NCBI GenBank assembly: GCA_039679385.1
Contig: JBDKVB010000129.1
Location: forward strand, 1 to 51,478
Direction of reading: 5' to 3'
Source of the DNA: Armatimonadia bacterium
GTDB lineage: Bacteria > Armatimonadota > Zipacnadia > Zipacnadales > JABUFB01
DNA length: 51,478 nucleotides
Made by a program: the position numbers and the translations under genes. The notes under the pieces were generated by a model. The model ran no database searches, was not told the DNA's origin, and saw only the letters and a list, made by a program, of their open reading frames with translations. Positions 44,300-51,478 of the stretch are shown here, one piece after another (position 1 is the first letter of the stretch; the number at the start of each line of letters is the position of its first letter).

Positions 44300-44395
44300 C
44301 GGCGAGAGCTGTGCGGCCCAAGATGCGAAGGGCTGGATGGACTGCTCGCGATGGCGCGAGGATGTGCAGGACACGGGATAGGCTGGAGGCCCAAG

Positions 44396-47300
44396 ATGAA
44401 CCGGACACAGTGGACGATGGCGCTGCTGGTACTGGTGATGGGGACTGCCTTCGGGCAAGGGCGGCAGGAGCTGAGTCTTTCGGGCGAGTGGGAGTATGTG
44501 AAGGTGGCGGATCTCACGACTCCGCCGGCAGAGGGCTGGACTGCGATCCATGTGCCCGGGATGCTCAGCGGGATGGACTACGAGCGTGCCTGGTTCCGGC
44601 GAGACTTCGGCATCCCGGAAAGCATGCGGGGTATGCGGGTTGTGCTGCATTTCGGGGGCGTGAAGTACAACAGCGTGGTGCGAGTCAATGGGCAGAAGGT
44701 TGGAGGGTGTTTTGGCGGCTATGACCCCTTCGACGTGGACATCACGGCGGTGGCGCGTTTCGGCGAGGCGAACCGGCTGGAACTGGGCTGCTGTGACTGG
44801 ACCGGCATCTTCAGCGACCGCGAGACGAGCTTCGCGGTGACCCAGACCAGGGCGGTAGATGCGCGGTCGATCCCCAGGGACAAGATACTGGCACCGATCG
44901 GCGGCCTGTGGAACCTCTACGGTCCGTGGGATGACGTGAAGCTGCGGGCCCATCCGGCTTTGTACGTGAGTGACCTCTTTATCAAACCCTCCTGGCGCAA
45001 GAAGACGTTGCGGGTTGAGTACACGATCAAGAACCTGACGGAGAAGGCAGAAGAGGTGACCCTGGGAGCGGTCGTGGAGGACCAGGGCGCTGAAGGACCG
45101 CCCCTTGGGCCACAGAAGGTCAGTGTCCCGGCCGGCCAGGAGGTTGCGGTGGTGCAGGAGGTGCCCTGGAGCACCCCGCGTTGCTGGTCGCCGGAGGACC
45201 CGTACCTGTACTACCTGCGAACCAGGCTCAGCCGGGGCACGGAGGTACTGGATGAGCTGCGTACGCGGTTCGGGTTCCGGGAGTTCTGGGTCGAAGGACG
45301 GTACTTCTACCTGAACGGATCCAGGATCAACTTGCTGGCTACGTCGTGGTGGCCGCCGAGGGAGGCCGTGGACAAGGAGTACATCCGCGGGCAGATCGCG
45401 GCGATCAAGGGAGCCCACTGCGTGATCTTCCGCACCCATACGCAGCCGTGGCCGGAGATCTGGTATGAGACGGCGGACGAGGAAGGGCTGATGATGATCC
45501 CGGAGGGCGCCGTGTGGAACGATGACGCGGCTTACCGGGTGAACGATCCGGTGTTCTGGAGCAACTACGCTGCGCACCTCAAGGCAATGGTGAATCGGGA
45601 AAAGAACCGGCCCTCCGTGGTGATGTACAGCCTGGAGAACGAGTTCTACGGCGGTCGGGTCAACGACGATTCGCCGGCGAAAGCGGAACTGGTAAAGCTG
45701 GGCGAGATGGTGCGGCAGTTGGACCCGACACGGCCCTTCATGTATGAGTCGGATGGGGACCCGGGAGGCGTGGCCGATGTGGTTGGGATCCACTATCCGC
45801 ACGAGTACCCGCAGTTCACCACGTGGCCGAACACGGCCTACTGGATGGACGGGCCGAAAGCCGGTGGCAGTCTGTTCACCAATGGCGCCCCCTCCTGGCA
45901 GTGGGACCGCAAGAAGCCGGTGTACGTGGGCGAGTTCCTCTGGGTGCCCTCGTCGGACCCCTCGTGGCACACGGTGTTCTTCGGTGATGACGCGTACCTG
46001 GACTACACCGGGTACCGCGTGCGGGCCAAGGGGGAGTCGTGGCGGATGGCGATTCAGGCCTACCGGCACTATGAGGTCGGTGGCATCTCGCCCTGGACGA
46101 TGGTGGAGGGCGGGTCACTGGACGAGACCAGGAACGCCATGTACGCCGCGCAGAAGTACGCGATGCAGCCGGTGGCGGCCTACGTCCGGGAGTATGACCA
46201 CAACTTCTACGCCGGGGAGGAGATCACGCGGACGCTGGAGGTGTACAACGACCAGTTGAGCCCGGCGAACCTGGTGGTGCAGTGGACGCTGCTGGAGGGA
46301 GACCGGGAGCTGCACCGGGGTGAGAAGAACCTGTCGATGGAGCCCGGCGAGCGGCGTGAGATCGAGATCGCGGAGACGATGCCGCTGGTTCTTGAGCGTA
46401 GTGAGGTGACACTACGTGTCAGGGTGATGAAGGCTGCGGAGACGGTATTCGAGGACACGAAGGCCTACTCGGTGTTCCCGCCACTCAAGCTGACCGCGCC
46501 GGCCGGAGTGCAGATTGGCGTCTACGACCCGAACGGGGCGACGCAGGGGACCCTCGAGCGGCTGTCCGTGCCGACGGTGAAGGTGGATGACCTGAAGGCG
46601 ATTCCGGCAGGGGTGCAGGTGGTGGTGATCGGCCGCGGTGCGCTGCAGCCGGAGAAAGCCGGCATGCCGGTGATTGGGGAAGGCGGCGAAGGTGGCCCGC
46701 TGGTGGATTGGGTGCGCCGGGGAGGCCGGGTGCTGGTGCTGGAGCAGTCCGAGTACCCGCGGGGGATGATTCCGGCCAGCCTCCTGAAGCAGGACTCGAC
46801 GATGACCTTCGCGCAACTGCCCGGTCATCCGCTGCTCAAGGGCATCCAGGCGACCGACCTGAAGTGGTGGCGAAGGGACAATATGGTGACCGAGGGCGAG
46901 CCCCTGCGGCCACGAACCGGGGCATGGCGCGCTGTGGTGGTCTCGGGCAGCCAGGCAGGGCTGTCGCACGCACCGCTTCTGGAGCTGCCGATTGGGCAAG
47001 GAACAATGGTGCTGTCGCAACTGAAGGTCGCGGGGAAGCTGGGTGTTGAGCCGGTGGCCGGGATGCTGTTGCAGAACGCGCTGGGCTATCTGGCCGGATA
47101 TGCCGGAAAGCCGAATCGGACGGCGCTGTATTGCCCGTCGGCGGTGACGAAGGACTACCTGGAGGGCCTGGGACTGGTGTACGCGGATATCACGCAGGCA
47201 CCGGGGAAGTGTGACTGGGCTGCTACGGACCTGTTGGTGGCCTGTGGGCCGCTGGAAGGGCTGGTCAAGGAGGCTGAGACGGTCCAGCAGATCGTCGCGC

Positions 47301-48505
47301 TCCTGGAACGGGGCGGAACGGTGCTGCTGCACGGGGTCACTGCGCAGGATATGGTGGACCTCGCGCCGGTGGCGGGTGACCAGATACGGCTTGTGCCCTA
47401 TCAGGGCTCTGTGGTGAGGATGCCGGGGGCACACGCGCTGTCGGAGAGCCTCACCAACGAGGACCTGTATTGGCTCGGGCCGCAGACAGCGGCGAATAGC
47501 TGGGCAACGCGGCCGAGAGCAGGGGACATGGCAGACTTCGTGGTGGCGAAGACACTGAGTGGGACGAGGGTTGGTGAGTACCAGCACGGGCAGATGACGG
47601 TGGCGGGAACGTACTCCTCCGACCGGGAGAACTGGGCGTCGCTAGCGACGAGTGGCTCGACGGCGACGGCGAAGGTGGAGATCCCTGCGGAGGGGATGTA
47701 TGTGATCGGCGTGCAGGCGGGTGGGACACCGACGCTGGGGATCTGGCCTGCCGGTGACGTGCTCGTGGACGGGCGGCTTCTGGGGGCGTTCCAGTGCCAG
47801 AAGGGCGAGTTGGATACCTACACGGTATCAGGGAAGCTGACGGCCGGGAGTCATGAGGTGGCAGTGCGGTTCACGAACGATGCCTCGCGGCCTCCGCTGG
47901 AGGACCGGAACATGTTCGTGGGTGGGATCGTGATTGCGGAAGATAACGCGGCCGGTGGAGTGGCGCTGCTGACCCAGCCCGGGGCACTCGCAGTGGTCCA
48001 GCGCGGGCAGGGGCGAGTAGTGCTTGACGAGGTGAACTGGGACAAGACCGACAGCAACGCGGAGAAGGCCTCGCGGTACATCTCGGGGCTTCTCACCGGC
48101 CTGGGTGCGTCGCTTGAGGCGACGAAGGCAGCAGTGATCCCGGTCAACCAATGGGAGCACGCGCCGGGGATGAACTGGTACCGGTCGGAACCGGGATGGG
48201 CGTACCTGGGTGACCGAGGATGGATAGCGGGGAAGGTGGAGTGCGCGCGGGCCGGGCGCTACCAGTTGCGCCTGGTGGGGAGAGGGACGCCTGCAGCAGG
48301 GCAGTACCCGGTGGTGGAAGAGAGCATCGACGGGAAGCTTGTGGGGCAGGTGGAGGTGGCCGGGCAGTCGACGCGGGGCTACCCGCTGAGTGTGGAACTG
48401 CCGAAGGGCACCGTCGAGATAAGGCTGGAGTTTGTGAATGACCTGAACGTGGAGGGTGAGGACCGGAATCTGTGGATTGAGCGGCTGGAGGCGGTAGCAG
48501 AATAG
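44396..48505 (+). CDS. Secreted GH2-family glycoside hydrolase with tandem C-terminal modules
   Basis: 1369 aa. ATG 44396 after GGAGG starts a signal peptide (residues 1-21). The sugar-binding jelly roll (about 25-190; LSLSGEWEYVKVADL) and Ig-like domain (about 190-300) precede a TIM barrel. Its acid/base is Glu416 (YSLENEFYGG) and the nucleophile Glu513 (YVGEFLW), as in beta-galactosidases, mannosidases and glucuronidases. Residues of about 600-1060 contain beta-sandwich and Rossmann-like segments (VVVIGRGALQPEK; WVRRGGRVLVLEQSEYP) resembling a DUF4350/GATase-like domain. Two carbohydrate-binding modules follow (about 1070-1180 and 1275-1369), both ending in an EDRN-[ML] motif like CBM60-type xylan binders. 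The substrate is unknown. The duplicated modules suggest binding to insoluble plant or algal glycans. Confidence 0.9.
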   Translation: MNRTQWTMALLVLVMGTAFGQGRQELSLSGEWEYVKVADLTTPPAEGWTAIHVPGMLSGMDYERAWFRRDFGIPESMRGMRVVLHFGGVKYNSVVRVNGQKVGGCFGGYDPFDVDITAVARFGEANRLELGCCDWTGIFSDRETSFAVTQTRAVDARSIPRDKILAPIGGLWNLYGPWDDVKLRAHPALYVSDLFIKPSWRKKTLRVEYTIKNLTEKAEEVTLGAVVEDQGAEGPPLGPQKVSVPAGQEVAVVQEVPWSTPRCWSPEDPYLYYLRTRLSRGTEVLDELRTRFGFREFWVEGRYFYLNGSRINLLATSWWPPREAVDKEYIRGQIAAIKGAHCVIFRTHTQPWPEIWYETADEEGLMMIPEGAVWNDDAAYRVNDPVFWSNYAAHLKAMVNREKNRPSVVMYSLENEFYGGRVNDDSPAKAELVKLGEMVRQLDPTRPFMYESDGDPGGVADVVGIHYPHEYPQFTTWPNTAYWMDGPKAGGSLFTNGAPSWQWDRKKPVYVGEFLWVPSSDPSWHTVFFGDDAYLDYTGYRVRAKGESWRMAIQAYRHYEVGGISPWTMVEGGSLDETRNAMYAAQKYAMQPVAAYVREYDHNFYAGEEITRTLEVYNDQLSPANLVVQWTLLEGDRELHRGEKNLSMEPGERREIEIAETMPLVLERSEVTLRVRVMKAAETVFEDTKAYSVFPPLKLTAPAGVQIGVYDPNGATQGTLERLSVPTVKVDDLKAIPAGVQVVVIGRGALQPEKAGMPVIGEGGEGGPLVDWVRRGGRVLVLEQSEYPRGMIPASLLKQDSTMTFAQLPGHPLLKGIQATDLKWWRRDNMVTEGEPLRPRTGAWRAVVVSGSQAGLSHAPLLELPIGQGTMVLSQLKVAGKLGVEPVAGMLLQNALGYLAGYAGKPNRTALYCPSAVTKDYLEGLGLVYADITQAPGKCDWAATDLLVACGPLEGLVKEAETVQQIVALLERGGTVLLHGVTAQDMVDLAPVAGDQIRLVPYQGSVVRMPGAHALSESLTNEDLYWLGPQTAANSWATRPRAGDMADFVVAKTLSGTRVGEYQHGQMTVAGTYSSDRENWASLATSGSTATAKVEIPAEGMYVIGVQAGGTPTLGIWPAGDVLVDGRLLGAFQCQKGELDTYTVSGKLTAGSHEVAVRFTNDASRPPLEDRNMFVGGIVIAEDNAAGGVALLTQPGALAVVQRGQGRVVLDEVNWDKTDSNAEKASRYISGLLTGLGASLEATKAAVIPVNQWEHAPGMNWYRSEPGWAYLGDRGWIAGKVECARAGRYQLRLVGRGTPAAGQYPVVEESIDGKLVGQVEVAGQSTRGYPLSVELPKGTVEIRLEFVNDLNVEGEDRNLWIERLEAVAE

Positions 48506-48637: not shown

Positions 48638-50575
48638 TTGCCGTCGCGTGACCCGACGACTCTTGCGCTGGAGGCACGGCGAGCACGAGGAGTGCAGGTC
48701 GGTATTGCACTGGTTGTGCTGGTGGTCGTTCTGCGTTTCACCCCCCTGACGAGCAACCTCTTCCTTTTCTCTGTGATCGAGAATCTGGCGTACGACAGCA
48801 CCTTTGACCGGGCGCAACCTCAGCCCCCGGTCGACCTTGTAATTGTGGCGGTTGATGACCGTTCGCTGGCCGAGATGGGGCGATTTCAGGACTGGCACCG
48901 GGACGTATATGCGAACTTGGTGGACAGACTCCTGAGCGCGAAGGTAGTGGCCTTCGACCTCTTGTTTCCTGAACCCGACGCGGGCCCAGGGATGAGTGCG
49001 TCGAAGAGCGATGAGAGGTTTGCAGCGGCGATGCGCAAACACGGGAGAGTGGTTCTCGCAGCGCACTGGGAGGAGGGAGGCGGCCAATCCGGGCGATCCG
49101 GAGCGGGCGATCGGGAACGGTTGCAGCTTCCGACCCGAAGGCTGGCTGAGGCTGCAGCGGGAGTTGGGTACGTGGACCTGACGCCCGATGGTGACGGGGT
49201 GTACCGGCGGTTCAGCCCGCAAAGGGTGGATGCGGAGGGGCAAGCGCGGGAGCACTTCGGGGTCGTGATTGCGAGGCTGGCCGGGGCCAGGGCGGAGGCC
49301 GGAAAGGGCGGCACTGATCGGCTCATCAACTACTGCGGACCGCAGGGAACGGTTCGTCGGGTGAGCCTGGTAGAGGTGCTGAAGGATCCGAAAGTGGCGG
49401 AAAGCCTGGCCGGGAAGATCGTGATTGTGGGAGCGACGGCGCCGGGGCTGTATGACATCCGACCGGCGCCCTACCGGAGCACGGGCAGGCTGTTCTATGG
49501 CGTGGACATGAACGCGAATATTGTGAATACGCTCACGGGGCCCGGCCGGCTGGTGGATCGGACCGGTTCGTGGCTGTGGGCAGCCTATGCGGTGCTGGTC
49601 GGGACACTGGTGACCCTGGTGGTGTGGAGGGCCGAGGAGACGGTGGCGGCGACGCTGAGCATCCTGGTGGTGCTGGCGCTGGCGGTGCCCTCGTTCCCTG
49701 TGGCGCTGCGGTACCTGGGGCAGGTGGTTCCCTATGGGGCGATTCTCGGCGCGGCTGTGGTGCCGCTGGTGCTGGGGCTGCCGGAGCGGCTGACGGCGGA
49801 GAGACGGCTGATTCAGCGGCAGTTCGGGGCCTATGTGTCGCCGGAGGTGCTGCGGGGGCTGATGAGTGAGCCGGAGACGCTGCGGAGTAGTCAGCGTCAG
49901 CAGGTGACGCTGCTTTTCGCGGACGTGCGCGGCTCGACGACGCTGGCCGAGCAGACGTCGCCGGAAGTGTGGGTCGCGCAGCTCAATGAGTATCTGACGC
50001 AGATGAGTCGGGCGATCTTCACCTACGATGGGTATCTGGACAAGTTCATGGGGGACGGGATCATGGCTGTGTGGAATGCCTTCGGGACGCAGGAGGGCAG
50101 TCACGCTGAGTTGGCGGTCCGAGCCGGGCTACAGATGCTGCAGCGGCTGGAGGTGCTGAATCGGGCCTGGGCCTCGCGCGAAGGCCGGGCACAGCTTCGG
50201 ATTGGGATCGGGATTCACAGCGGGGAGGCAGTGGTGGGGAACGTGGGGTCAGAAGACCGGACGCAGTACACGGCGATCGGGGATACGGTGAACACGGCCT
50301 CGCGGATCGAGGAGATGACGAAGGAGTACGGCGTGGCCTTCGTGGTGAGCGAGGCGACAGCGAAGCTGGTCGGGGAGCAAGTGACGCTGCGCGAGCTGGG
50401 GAGAGCCCCTGTGCGAGGCAGATCGGAAGGAGTGGGTGTGTACGAGGTGGTCGGGCCGGGGAAGGCAACGACACCTCACTCCCCGGCCCTCTCTCCACGA
50501 CACGGCAACGGCACCTCACGCCCTTTGTCCCCCTCTCCACGCGGTGGCGAGGGGGAAGGCAAAGGCAACGGATGA
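48638..50575 (+). CDS. CHASE2-domain adenylate/guanylate cyclase (class III)
   Basis: 645 aa membrane sensor-cyclase. TTG 48638 follows GGGAGGGG by 8 nt; ATG 48631 is in another frame and stops after six codons. One N-terminal helix (about 18-36) and an extracytoplasmic CHASE2 domain (about 40-300; LVIVAVDDRSLAEMG and IVIVGATAPGLYDIR) precede three helices (about 303-385). The cyclase domain (about 420-600) has both metal Asp residues, Asp429 (FADVRGST) and Asp473 (KFMGDGIM), 44 apart, and YTAIGDTVNTASRIE with the transition-state Asn/Arg. It is likely active; ATP or GTP specificity is not settled. The last 40 residues (after YEVVGPG) derive from an interspersed repeat, and the stop lies within a 19-bp tandem repeat. 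Confidence 0.93.
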   Translation: MPSRDPTTLALEARRARGVQVGIALVVLVVVLRFTPLTSNLFLFSVIENLAYDSTFDRAQPQPPVDLVIVAVDDRSLAEMGRFQDWHRDVYANLVDRLLSAKVVAFDLLFPEPDAGPGMSASKSDERFAAAMRKHGRVVLAAHWEEGGGQSGRSGAGDRERLQLPTRRLAEAAAGVGYVDLTPDGDGVYRRFSPQRVDAEGQAREHFGVVIARLAGARAEAGKGGTDRLINYCGPQGTVRRVSLVEVLKDPKVAESLAGKIVIVGATAPGLYDIRPAPYRSTGRLFYGVDMNANIVNTLTGPGRLVDRTGSWLWAAYAVLVGTLVTLVVWRAEETVAATLSILVVLALAVPSFPVALRYLGQVVPYGAILGAAVVPLVLGLPERLTAERRLIQRQFGAYVSPEVLRGLMSEPETLRSSQRQQVTLLFADVRGSTTLAEQTSPEVWVAQLNEYLTQMSRAIFTYDGYLDKFMGDGIMAVWNAFGTQEGSHAELAVRAGLQMLQRLEVLNRAWASREGRAQLRIGIGIHSGEAVVGNVGSEDRTQYTAIGDTVNTASRIEEMTKEYGVAFVVSEATAKLVGEQVTLRELGRAPVRGRSEGVGVYEVVGPGKATTPHSPALSPRHGNGTSRPLSPSPRGGEGEGKGNG

Positions 50576-50725
50576 CGGCAACGGCAACGGATGACGGCAA
50601 CGGCACCTCACTCCCCGGCCCTCTTTTCATGCGGCGGCGAGGGGGAACGGCGAAGGCAACGGCACCTCACCCCGGCCCTCTCCCGAGGGGAGAGGGAGAA
50701 AGGCAGAGGCACCTCACCCCCTGCC
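50463..50725. repeat. Interspersed repeat field (CACCTCAC...CCCGGCCCTCTC type)
   Basis: At least four degenerate copies of a unit read as C-(A/G)-G-C-A-C-C-T-C-A-C, then CCCCGGCCCTCTC, then a purine arm GGCGAGGGGGAA, start near 50470, 50507, 50600 and 50662, with a partial copy near 50709. The GAGGG/CCCTC arms can fold back. One segment, 50564-50601, is two exact tandem copies of a 19-bp unit, GGCAACGGATGACGGCAAC. Such palindromic extragenic repeats occur in many G+C-rich genomes. Confidence 0.8.
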
Positions 50726-51138
50726 TTCGGCGTCCCCCTCAATGAAATGGCCTGTCAAGAGGCCGGGGCGAGAGGATGTGTCGTTAGCCTTGAGTCGTGC
50801 CTCCGTTGCCCTTGGCCATGTATATAACATGGCCAAGGTGTGTGCTGTCGGAGGTCTGCTGTTACGGGTCTGCCGGCTGTTGTCCGCGATCTGCCCTCGC
50901 CTGGTTACGGTCTGCCGTCGCCGTGTGCTGTGCCCTTGGCCTGCGTGATGGAGGCTTTCTCATCCCTCAATGGGTGCCGACGTCGCACAGGTTAACTTCG
51001 TAGACTGCCGGCTCCTAAACCTCTCCCGATCTCAGCGTCAGACGAGGGGAATCCGAGGACACCGGCAAACCGAAGCTCACGCAAAACGGCCGGTACAGCA
51101 CAGCTCGCAGGGCCCGGCTCAGGCAGCCGCAGTGCGGC
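50576..51138. other. Non-coding stretch between the cyclase gene and the transposase
   Basis: 563 bp with repeat copies to about 50725, a 29-nt palindrome at 50810-50838 and a semi-repetitive stretch (GTTACGGGTCTGCCG and GGTTACGGTCTGCCG near 50871 and 50904). The right part probably contains the non-coding end of the insertion sequence. I see no credible protein gene. Confidence 0.6.
50810..50838. repeat. Perfect 29-nt palindrome
   Basis: CCTTGGCCATGT (50810-50821) and ACATGGCCAAGG (50827-50838) are perfect 12-bp arms around ATATA. It has no T-run. It may be a regulatory dyad, a hairpin of an RNA, or a target or end of the nearby insertion element. Confidence 0.6.
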
Positions 51139-51478
51139 TCAGGCGGCCTCTGTGCTGGACTGGTGCAGCCGCCGGTGGGCGTAGTACACGTCTTTGACAA
51201 TCTCGCGGGCCGCCGCGATCTTCGCCGCGTTGGCCCCGTGACGGCTCTTGACCCGCAGGTACACCTCCTTGGCGCGGCTGGGGTGTTTGCTGCGAACCGT
51301 GGCCTGGGCGCATATCACCGCCCAGTAGCGCAGGTGTTTGTTGCAGTGTTTGGGCAGCCGCCCGGTGCGAGACTTGTCGCCGCTTTGCTGCACCGAGGGG
51401 GCCAGGCCCGCGTAGCTGATGAGCTGTTTGACGCTGGCGAAGCGGTTGAGGTCGCCCATCTCGGCGAGCATGCCCAGG
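51139..51478 (-). mobile_element. IS110-family transposase, C-terminal part (runs off the window)
   Basis: Minus-strand reading frame open to the window edge; at least 112 codons are visible. The sequence LAEMGDLNRFASVKQLISYAGLAPSVQQSG with RTGRLPKHCNKHLRYWAVICA is the Transposase_20 (IS116/IS110/IS902) domain, whose Ser acts as the recombinase nucleophile (probably the Ser of SGDKS). The first in-frame ATG (51471) is inside the domain, so the true N-terminus and the DEDD domain lie beyond the window. These transposases move without long inverted repeats, guided by a non-coding bridge RNA from the element's end. The 3' flank is inside the window. Confidence 0.9.

What the first reader, a model, noticed from the sequence alone, without database searches (positions are those of the whole stretch)
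50455..50601. Cyclase C-terminus extended by an interspersed repeat
After the natural end of the cyclase domain (YEVVGPG) the frame continues into the repeat field and stops within an exact 19-bp tandem duplication. Repeat invasion has changed the protein tail and may vary between strains.
Basis: seen in the sequence. Interest (0 to 1): 0.5.

Follow-up and report, generated by a model that had tools for sequence, protein, structure and literature searches.

The report
Repeat-encoded tail on a cyclase gene
A bacterial signalling enzyme ends in about 37 extra amino acids that are simply the translation of a scattered genomic repeat which, probably together with a jumping gene, has wedged itself between the enzyme's gene and its usual neighbour; this kind of event is already known.

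Summary
Observation confirmed. The CHASE2-cyclase ORF (48638-50575) leaves its conserved domain at YEVVGPG. Codons 609-645 (50462-50572) are REP-like palindromic repeat and end at a TGA inside the first copy of an exact 19-bp tandem duplication (50564-50601).

None of 27 orthologue C-termini examined carries the tail: they have 3-30 residues after the domain, here 39. The own genome holds at least 87 repeat hits in 57 fields; besides the cyclase, one other coding-like frame stops well inside a field. The tail is predicted disordered (pLDDT 30-35) and lacks a coding signature. I read it as a passive, probably tolerated extension. Correction: the stop is in copy 1 of the 19-bp unit, so 19-bp copy number would not change the protein.

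The larger event: in 26 of 27 orthologues a FecR-like gene follows directly. Here its orthologue lies on another contig, 323 bp from the contig end, behind the opposite end of an IS1111-like (IS110-family) element like the one that closes this window. Inferred order: cyclase, repeats, IS, repeat, FecR. All 8 informative IS junctions cut the repeat at one point. Each part has precedent: new member of a known kind.

The parts
48638..50575 (+). ORF of a CHASE2 + class III nucleotidyl cyclase protein, 645 aa, TTG start
48713..49609 (+). CHASE2 sensor domain, aa 26-324 (PF05226, E 4.2e-47)
49886..50428 (+). Adenylate/guanylate cyclase catalytic domain, aa 417-597 (PF00211, E 1.2e-24); D429, K469, D473, N552 and R556 invariant in 19 aligned sequences
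   Evidence: catalytic roles of these residues recalled
50462..50572 (+). Repeat-encoded C-terminal tail, aa 609-645; last predicted strand is aa 599-607, aa 610-645 have pLDDT below 50
50462..50738 (+). Field of head-to-tail REP-like units (R1 hits 50470-50506 weak, 50510-50561, 50602-50651, 50661-50704, 50708 onward interrupted)
50564..50601 (+). Exact 19-bp tandem duplication (50564-50582, 50583-50601) with the ORF's TGA at 50573-50575 in copy 1
50739..51478 (-). 3'-side part of an IS1111-like (IS110-family) insertion sequence, cut by the contig end
50742..50754 (.). Subterminal inverted repeat ATGAAATGGCCTG, 13 bp, perfect match to the copy at the end of contig C159
50742..51138 (-). 397-bp non-coding region downstream of tnp; candidate target-matching segments at 51044-51049 (CCCCTC on the minus strand) and 51020-51026 (GGAGAGG on the minus strand)
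   Evidence: 64 of 5000 random sequences have such a pair; criteria set after seeing it
51139..51478 (-). C-terminal part of the IS110-family transposase (Transposase_20, PF02371, E 7.8e-18)

Best explanation
A REP-like palindromic repeat array came to occupy the junction between a CHASE2-cyclase gene and its conserved downstream FecR-like gene. Shown: the cyclase frame enters the array directly after the last domain strand, and the repeat units are nearly stop-free in the sense direction, so translation would run 37 codons until the TGA in the spacer GGATGACGG. Inferred: the original variable, mostly acidic tail was lost and replaced by a disordered, slightly basic, Pro/Gly/Ser-rich tail, without selection for it and with little effect on catalysis. 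Inferred next step: an IS1111-like element inserted into the last repeat unit at its usual target point, separating cyclase from FecR and, being multi-copy, breaking the assembly there.
For: Domain boundary: PF00211 ends at aa 597; model strand 599-607, then aa 610-645 pLDDT 30-35. 27 of 27 orthologue C-termini lack the tail; tails 3-30 aa with net charge -6 to +1, against 39 aa and +3 here. Codon score +0.25 per codon for the core and -0.28 for the tail, trained on 23 window ORFs that include this one. Repeat is interspersed: 87 R1 hits at E<=0.01, merged to 57 fields. R1 units are open in sense frames 0/1/2 in 80, 79 and 78 of 87. A FecR-like gene follows the cyclase in 26 of 27 orthologues: 24 by motif, L018 and L026 by reading the sequence after the stop. 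Own FecR orthologue: C159, 58% identity, E 1.5e-142. The C159 end carries the other IS end, and with 3-bp and 7-bp extensions outside the 13-bp inverted repeats the C129 and C159 flanks meet as one uninterrupted repeat unit.
Against: No relative of the same genus is available, so the event is not dated and fixation is unknown. Expression of the tail is not shown. C129 and C159 are not physically joined in the assembly: two IS left ends of this subtype (C129, C80) and two right ends (C159, C163, identical over 106 bp) exist, so pairing rests on gene order. Orthologue L027 is not followed by the FecR-like gene. Nine of 57 fields are spanned by a coding-like ORF and six frames start in a field; these look like over-long start choices but were not resolved. 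R1 counts come from capped first looks.
Confidence: 0.82

Rival explanations
1. The tail has been recruited: the repeat-coded, basic, Pro/Gly/Ser-rich extension changes localisation, stability or partner binding of the cyclase and is under selection.
For: It is the longest of the 28 tails and the only one with net charge above +1.
Against: No coding signature, predicted disorder, no homologous tail in 27 orthologues, and orthologue tails vary freely in length.
Confidence: 0.08
2. The array matters as RNA or DNA, not as protein: its hairpins, lying in the 3' end of the cyclase message, terminate or stabilise the transcript and thereby uncouple FecR expression; the tail is a by-product.
For: The field folds better than its shuffles (z -3.23, 1 of 100 shuffles as good); [quoted passage not shown] genes elsewhere stop within 5 bp of a field in 4 of 57 fields.
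Against: No transcript data. The hairpin is 7 consensus pairs with little covariation (1 of 7 pairs with double changes). The IS alone would also uncouple FecR.
Confidence: 0.3
3. Assembly artefact: the metagenome or draft assembly joined repeat sequence wrongly to the cyclase gene end.
For: The contig ends 900 bp further on, in a multi-copy IS; repeats are where short-read assemblies fail.
Against: The join lies inside the contig; FecR on C159 carries the matching other half of a repeat unit and IS end, which an accidental join would not predict.
Confidence: 0.07

Closest known systems
REP elements overlapping genes (De Gregorio-type GTAG/CGTC REPs, PMC3733652; section 15 and passages read)
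   Same: Short palindromes in high copy, mostly intergenic, often next to gene 3' ends; [quoted passage not shown]
   Different: No GTAG or CGTC tag in the consensus; no Y1-type RAYT transposase found in the genome
Rickettsia palindromic elements and other protein-coding MITEs (review PMC2229807, passages read)
   Same: A mobile palindrome read in frame as part of a conserved enzyme
   Different: Here C-terminal extension only, unrelated sequence, unrelated host
IS elements that target REPs, e.g. ISPa11, ISPpu9, ISPpu10 (PMC1525189, abstract and Results read)
   Same: Every informative copy (8 junctions) sits at one point of the repeat
   Different: Different repeat and different IS
IS1111 family with seekRNA (PMC11187229, passages read)
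   Same: DEDD transposase, 13-bp subterminal repeats, 7 and 3 bp extensions, long region downstream of tnp, candidate segments in the IS1111 order
   Different: No RNA shown here; one guide segment has one change in the C132 subtype

Membership tests
GTAG/CGTC REP | short palindrome able to form a hairpin | tested here: met
GTAG/CGTC REP | high copy number, interspersed | tested here: met
   87 hits at E<=0.01, 57 fields
GTAG/CGTC REP | GTAG or CGTC tag at one end | tested here: not met
   consensus of 22 units begins GGCACCTCAC and holds no GTAG or CGTC
GTAG REP | RAYT (Y1_Tnp) gene in the genome | tested here: not met
   PF01797: 0 matches in a 96.6% complete genome; control rings in 5 of 14 genomes
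Protein-coding palindromes (RPE-like) | repeat read in frame within a conserved gene | tested here: met
Protein-coding palindromes (RPE-like) | translated product | not testable with these tools
   needs proteomics
IS1111 (IS110 family) | DEDD transposase with Transposase_20 C-terminus | tested here: met
   complete copy on C132: PF01548 E 3e-13, PF02371 E 8.9e-20; window part PF02371
IS1111 (IS110 family) | 11-13 bp subterminal inverted repeats with 7 and 3 bp extensions | tested here: met
   rule from PMC11187229
IS1111 (IS110 family) | long non-coding region downstream of tnp | tested here: met
   397 bp in the window
IS1111 (IS110 family) | seekRNA that pairs with both target strands | tested here: inconclusive
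   candidate pair in the right order; 64 of 5000 random sequences also have one; criteria set post hoc
Class III nucleotidyl cyclase | cyclase domain with catalytic residues | tested here: met
   PF00211; D429, K469, D473, N552, R556 invariant in 19 sequences, roles recalled

The most novel reading that the evidence does not exclude
A REP-like repeat array worked as a landing pad for an RNA-guided IS1111-like element, and the two together split a conserved, overlapping cyclase-FecR gene pair: the cyclase received a repeat-coded tail and FecR an independent expression unit. The repeat family would thus steer where operons of this lineage break.
Probability: 0.45. Interest if true: 0.42.

Novelty: new member of a known kind. 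Interest (0 to 1): 0.27.

Why it matters
It is a clean example of how an interspersed palindrome can add a tail to a conserved protein and of how repeat plus targeted IS can pull apart a conserved gene pair. It also warns annotators that such tails are repeat translation. It does not open a new class of system.

Tried and rejected
Rfam on 50000-51478: three hits far below the gathering scores (mir-1181, sot0042, Antizyme_FSE; best E 0.023), rejected as chance. RAYT as the mover of the repeat: no PF01797 match. Exact 20-mer of the repeat in genome contigs: 4 stretches, two from one Anaerolineae MAG, one Enterobacter, one Microbacterium; R1 confirms the repeat in the two Anaerolineae contigs, gives one weak hit in the Enterobacter stretch and none in the Microbacterium one, so spread beyond this order is shown for Anaerolineae only, and the window's own phylum stayed unnamed. 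A leftover of the old cyclase tail before FecR on C159: an open frame one base before FecR's exists, but it is constrained by FecR's own codons, so it was given no weight. Strain comparison: no same-genus genome held. Literature: peptide strings of the translated repeat gave 0 papers; searches on palindromic repeats in genes, REP overlap with stops and CHASE2 with FecR listed no paper on this repeat family by title or abstract start; only this library was searched.

Dropped before counting: L038 and L039 (their matches do not reach the C-terminus) were left out of the 29 relative loci, leaving 27. One search was a faulty first try (minus-strand loci not turned) and was replaced. The left IS end of C132 has too little flank and was left out of the 8 junctions. 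In one search, 40 of 47 first-look candidates were scored, 150 of 4881, 146 per genome.

Full report
What is there. The window is the whole of contig C129 (51478 bases) of a 5.61-Mb draft genome in 184 contigs. ORF 48638-50575 encodes CHASE2 (aa 26-324) and a class III cyclase domain (aa 417-597). After YEVVGPG the frame enters sequence that recurs head to tail to about 50738. It ends at TGA 50573-50575, inside the first copy of an exact 19-bp tandem duplication (50564-50582, 50583-50601). Because the stop is in copy 1, a change in 19-bp copy number would not alter the protein.

The repeat. Twenty-two units from the own genome share GGCACCTCAC followed by a hairpin of the form CCCTCTCCACGC-GTGGCGAGGG; RNAalifold keeps 7 pairs, one with double changes. 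Model R1 gives 100 own-genome hits at E<=0.05 and 87 at E<=0.01; a few of these are the two strands of one palindrome, and only 150 of 4881 first-look candidates were scored, so the number is approximate. The 87 hits merge into 57 fields. Of the 40 relatives, 30 have at least one hit: 20 in G001, 1 each in G002 and G003 (same family), up to 129 in G010. The family is widespread and patchy. It has no GTAG/CGTC tag and the genome no RAYT, so I call it REP-like, not a member of those families.

The tail against orthologues. 38 of 40 relatives have a cyclase match (39 of 41 genomes with the own one). I examined 27 C-termini out of 29 relative loci; two (L038, L039) do not reach the end. Conservation stops at the strand VYEVVG. 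Tails after it are 3-30 residues long with net charge -6 to +1; here 39 residues, +3. R1 finds nothing better than E 0.6 in the 29 relative loci. The codon score falls from +0.25 to -0.28 per codon at the tail. AlphaFold2 with 19 sequences places the last strand at 599-607 and gives 610-645 pLDDT 30-35.

How common it is. In the 57 fields, coding-like frames stop well inside the field in 2 cases: the cyclase, and C83:3-524, which has no Pfam match. Four more stop within 5 bp of a field edge. Nine fields are spanned by a coding-like ORF and six frames start in one; in the nine spanning cases the field lies near the ORF's first codons, which suggests start codons chosen too far upstream, but I did not resolve this. 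Units are open in the sense direction in 78-80 of 87 cases per frame, against 53-60 of 87 in antisense. A gene that runs into a unit in sense will therefore usually be extended; no selection for the tail is needed.

The neighbour. In 24 of 27 orthologues a gene with the motif (D/E)x(V/I)xREN follows 124-318 bp after the cyclase stop; L018 and L026 show the same gene start by eye; L027 does not. In the same-family loci L012, L029 and L037 its likely start lies 41-44 nt before the end of the cyclase stop codon, so the genes overlap. Pfam calls it FecR in L012 and in the own orthologue, the two tested. The own orthologue is on C159 with its start 323 bp from the contig end. That end carries the other end of an IS1111-like element.

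The IS. The window closes with the C-terminal part of an IS110-family transposase, preceded on the field side by a 397-bp non-coding region and a 13-bp subterminal inverted repeat. Left ends were found on C129, C132, C80, C51, C9 and C77, right ends on C159, C163 and C132. C132's left end has too little flank to judge; the other 8 junctions cut the repeat at one point...CCCC(C)|TCTCCACGC.... C77 keeps only a short left end. With the extensions known for IS1111 (7 and 3 bp, PMC11187229) the flanks of C129 and C159 meet as an uninterrupted unit. Two left ends (C129, C80) and two right ends (C159, C163) are of the same subtype, so the join C129-C159 rests on the conserved gene order and on matching orientation, not on reads. 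A candidate guide pair in the non-coding region has the IS1111 order; 64 of 5000 random sequences have one as well, and the criteria were set after seeing it.

Mechanism. Shown: repeat in frame, interspersed repeat, absence in orthologues, neighbour displaced to a contig whose end is an IS in the same repeat. Inferred: repeat array first, then IS; loss of the old tail; tolerance without function. Which process brought the first repeat is unknown.

Compared with what is known. REPs at gene ends that encode amino acids (PMC3733652, section 15), palindromes in frame in Rickettsia genes (PMC2229807, passages), REPs as IS targets at one fixed point (PMC1525189, Results) and RNA-guided IS1111 (PMC11187229, passages) cover every step. 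The finding is a new member of a known kind, of modest interest.

Noticed in passing
window 50739-51478; C132, C80, C51, C9, C77, C159, C163: An IS1111-like element with at least two subtypes inserts at one point of the REP-like repeat in all 8 informative junctions; its non-coding region holds a candidate guide pair.
   Followed up: partly
L104 (C83) 3-524: A second coding-like frame, open at its 5' end, runs into a repeat field (ends ...HKGTAPHPLPAASPLPRKG); no Pfam match.
   Followed up: partly
relatives L012-L037, L040: A CHASE2-cyclase gene directly followed by a membrane-anchored FecR-like gene is conserved across an order; function of the pair seems undescribed in the library searched.
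   Followed up: partly
L067, L069: The same repeat family is present in an Anaerolineae metagenome-assembled genome.
   Followed up: partly
L066 (C77) around 1500 on the minus strand: A left IS end of about 33 bp without the rest of the element, inside a repeat unit.
   Followed up: no
window 44351-48505: A 1384-aa glycoside hydrolase family 2 protein with CBM60 matches lies directly upstream of the cyclase.
   Followed up: no
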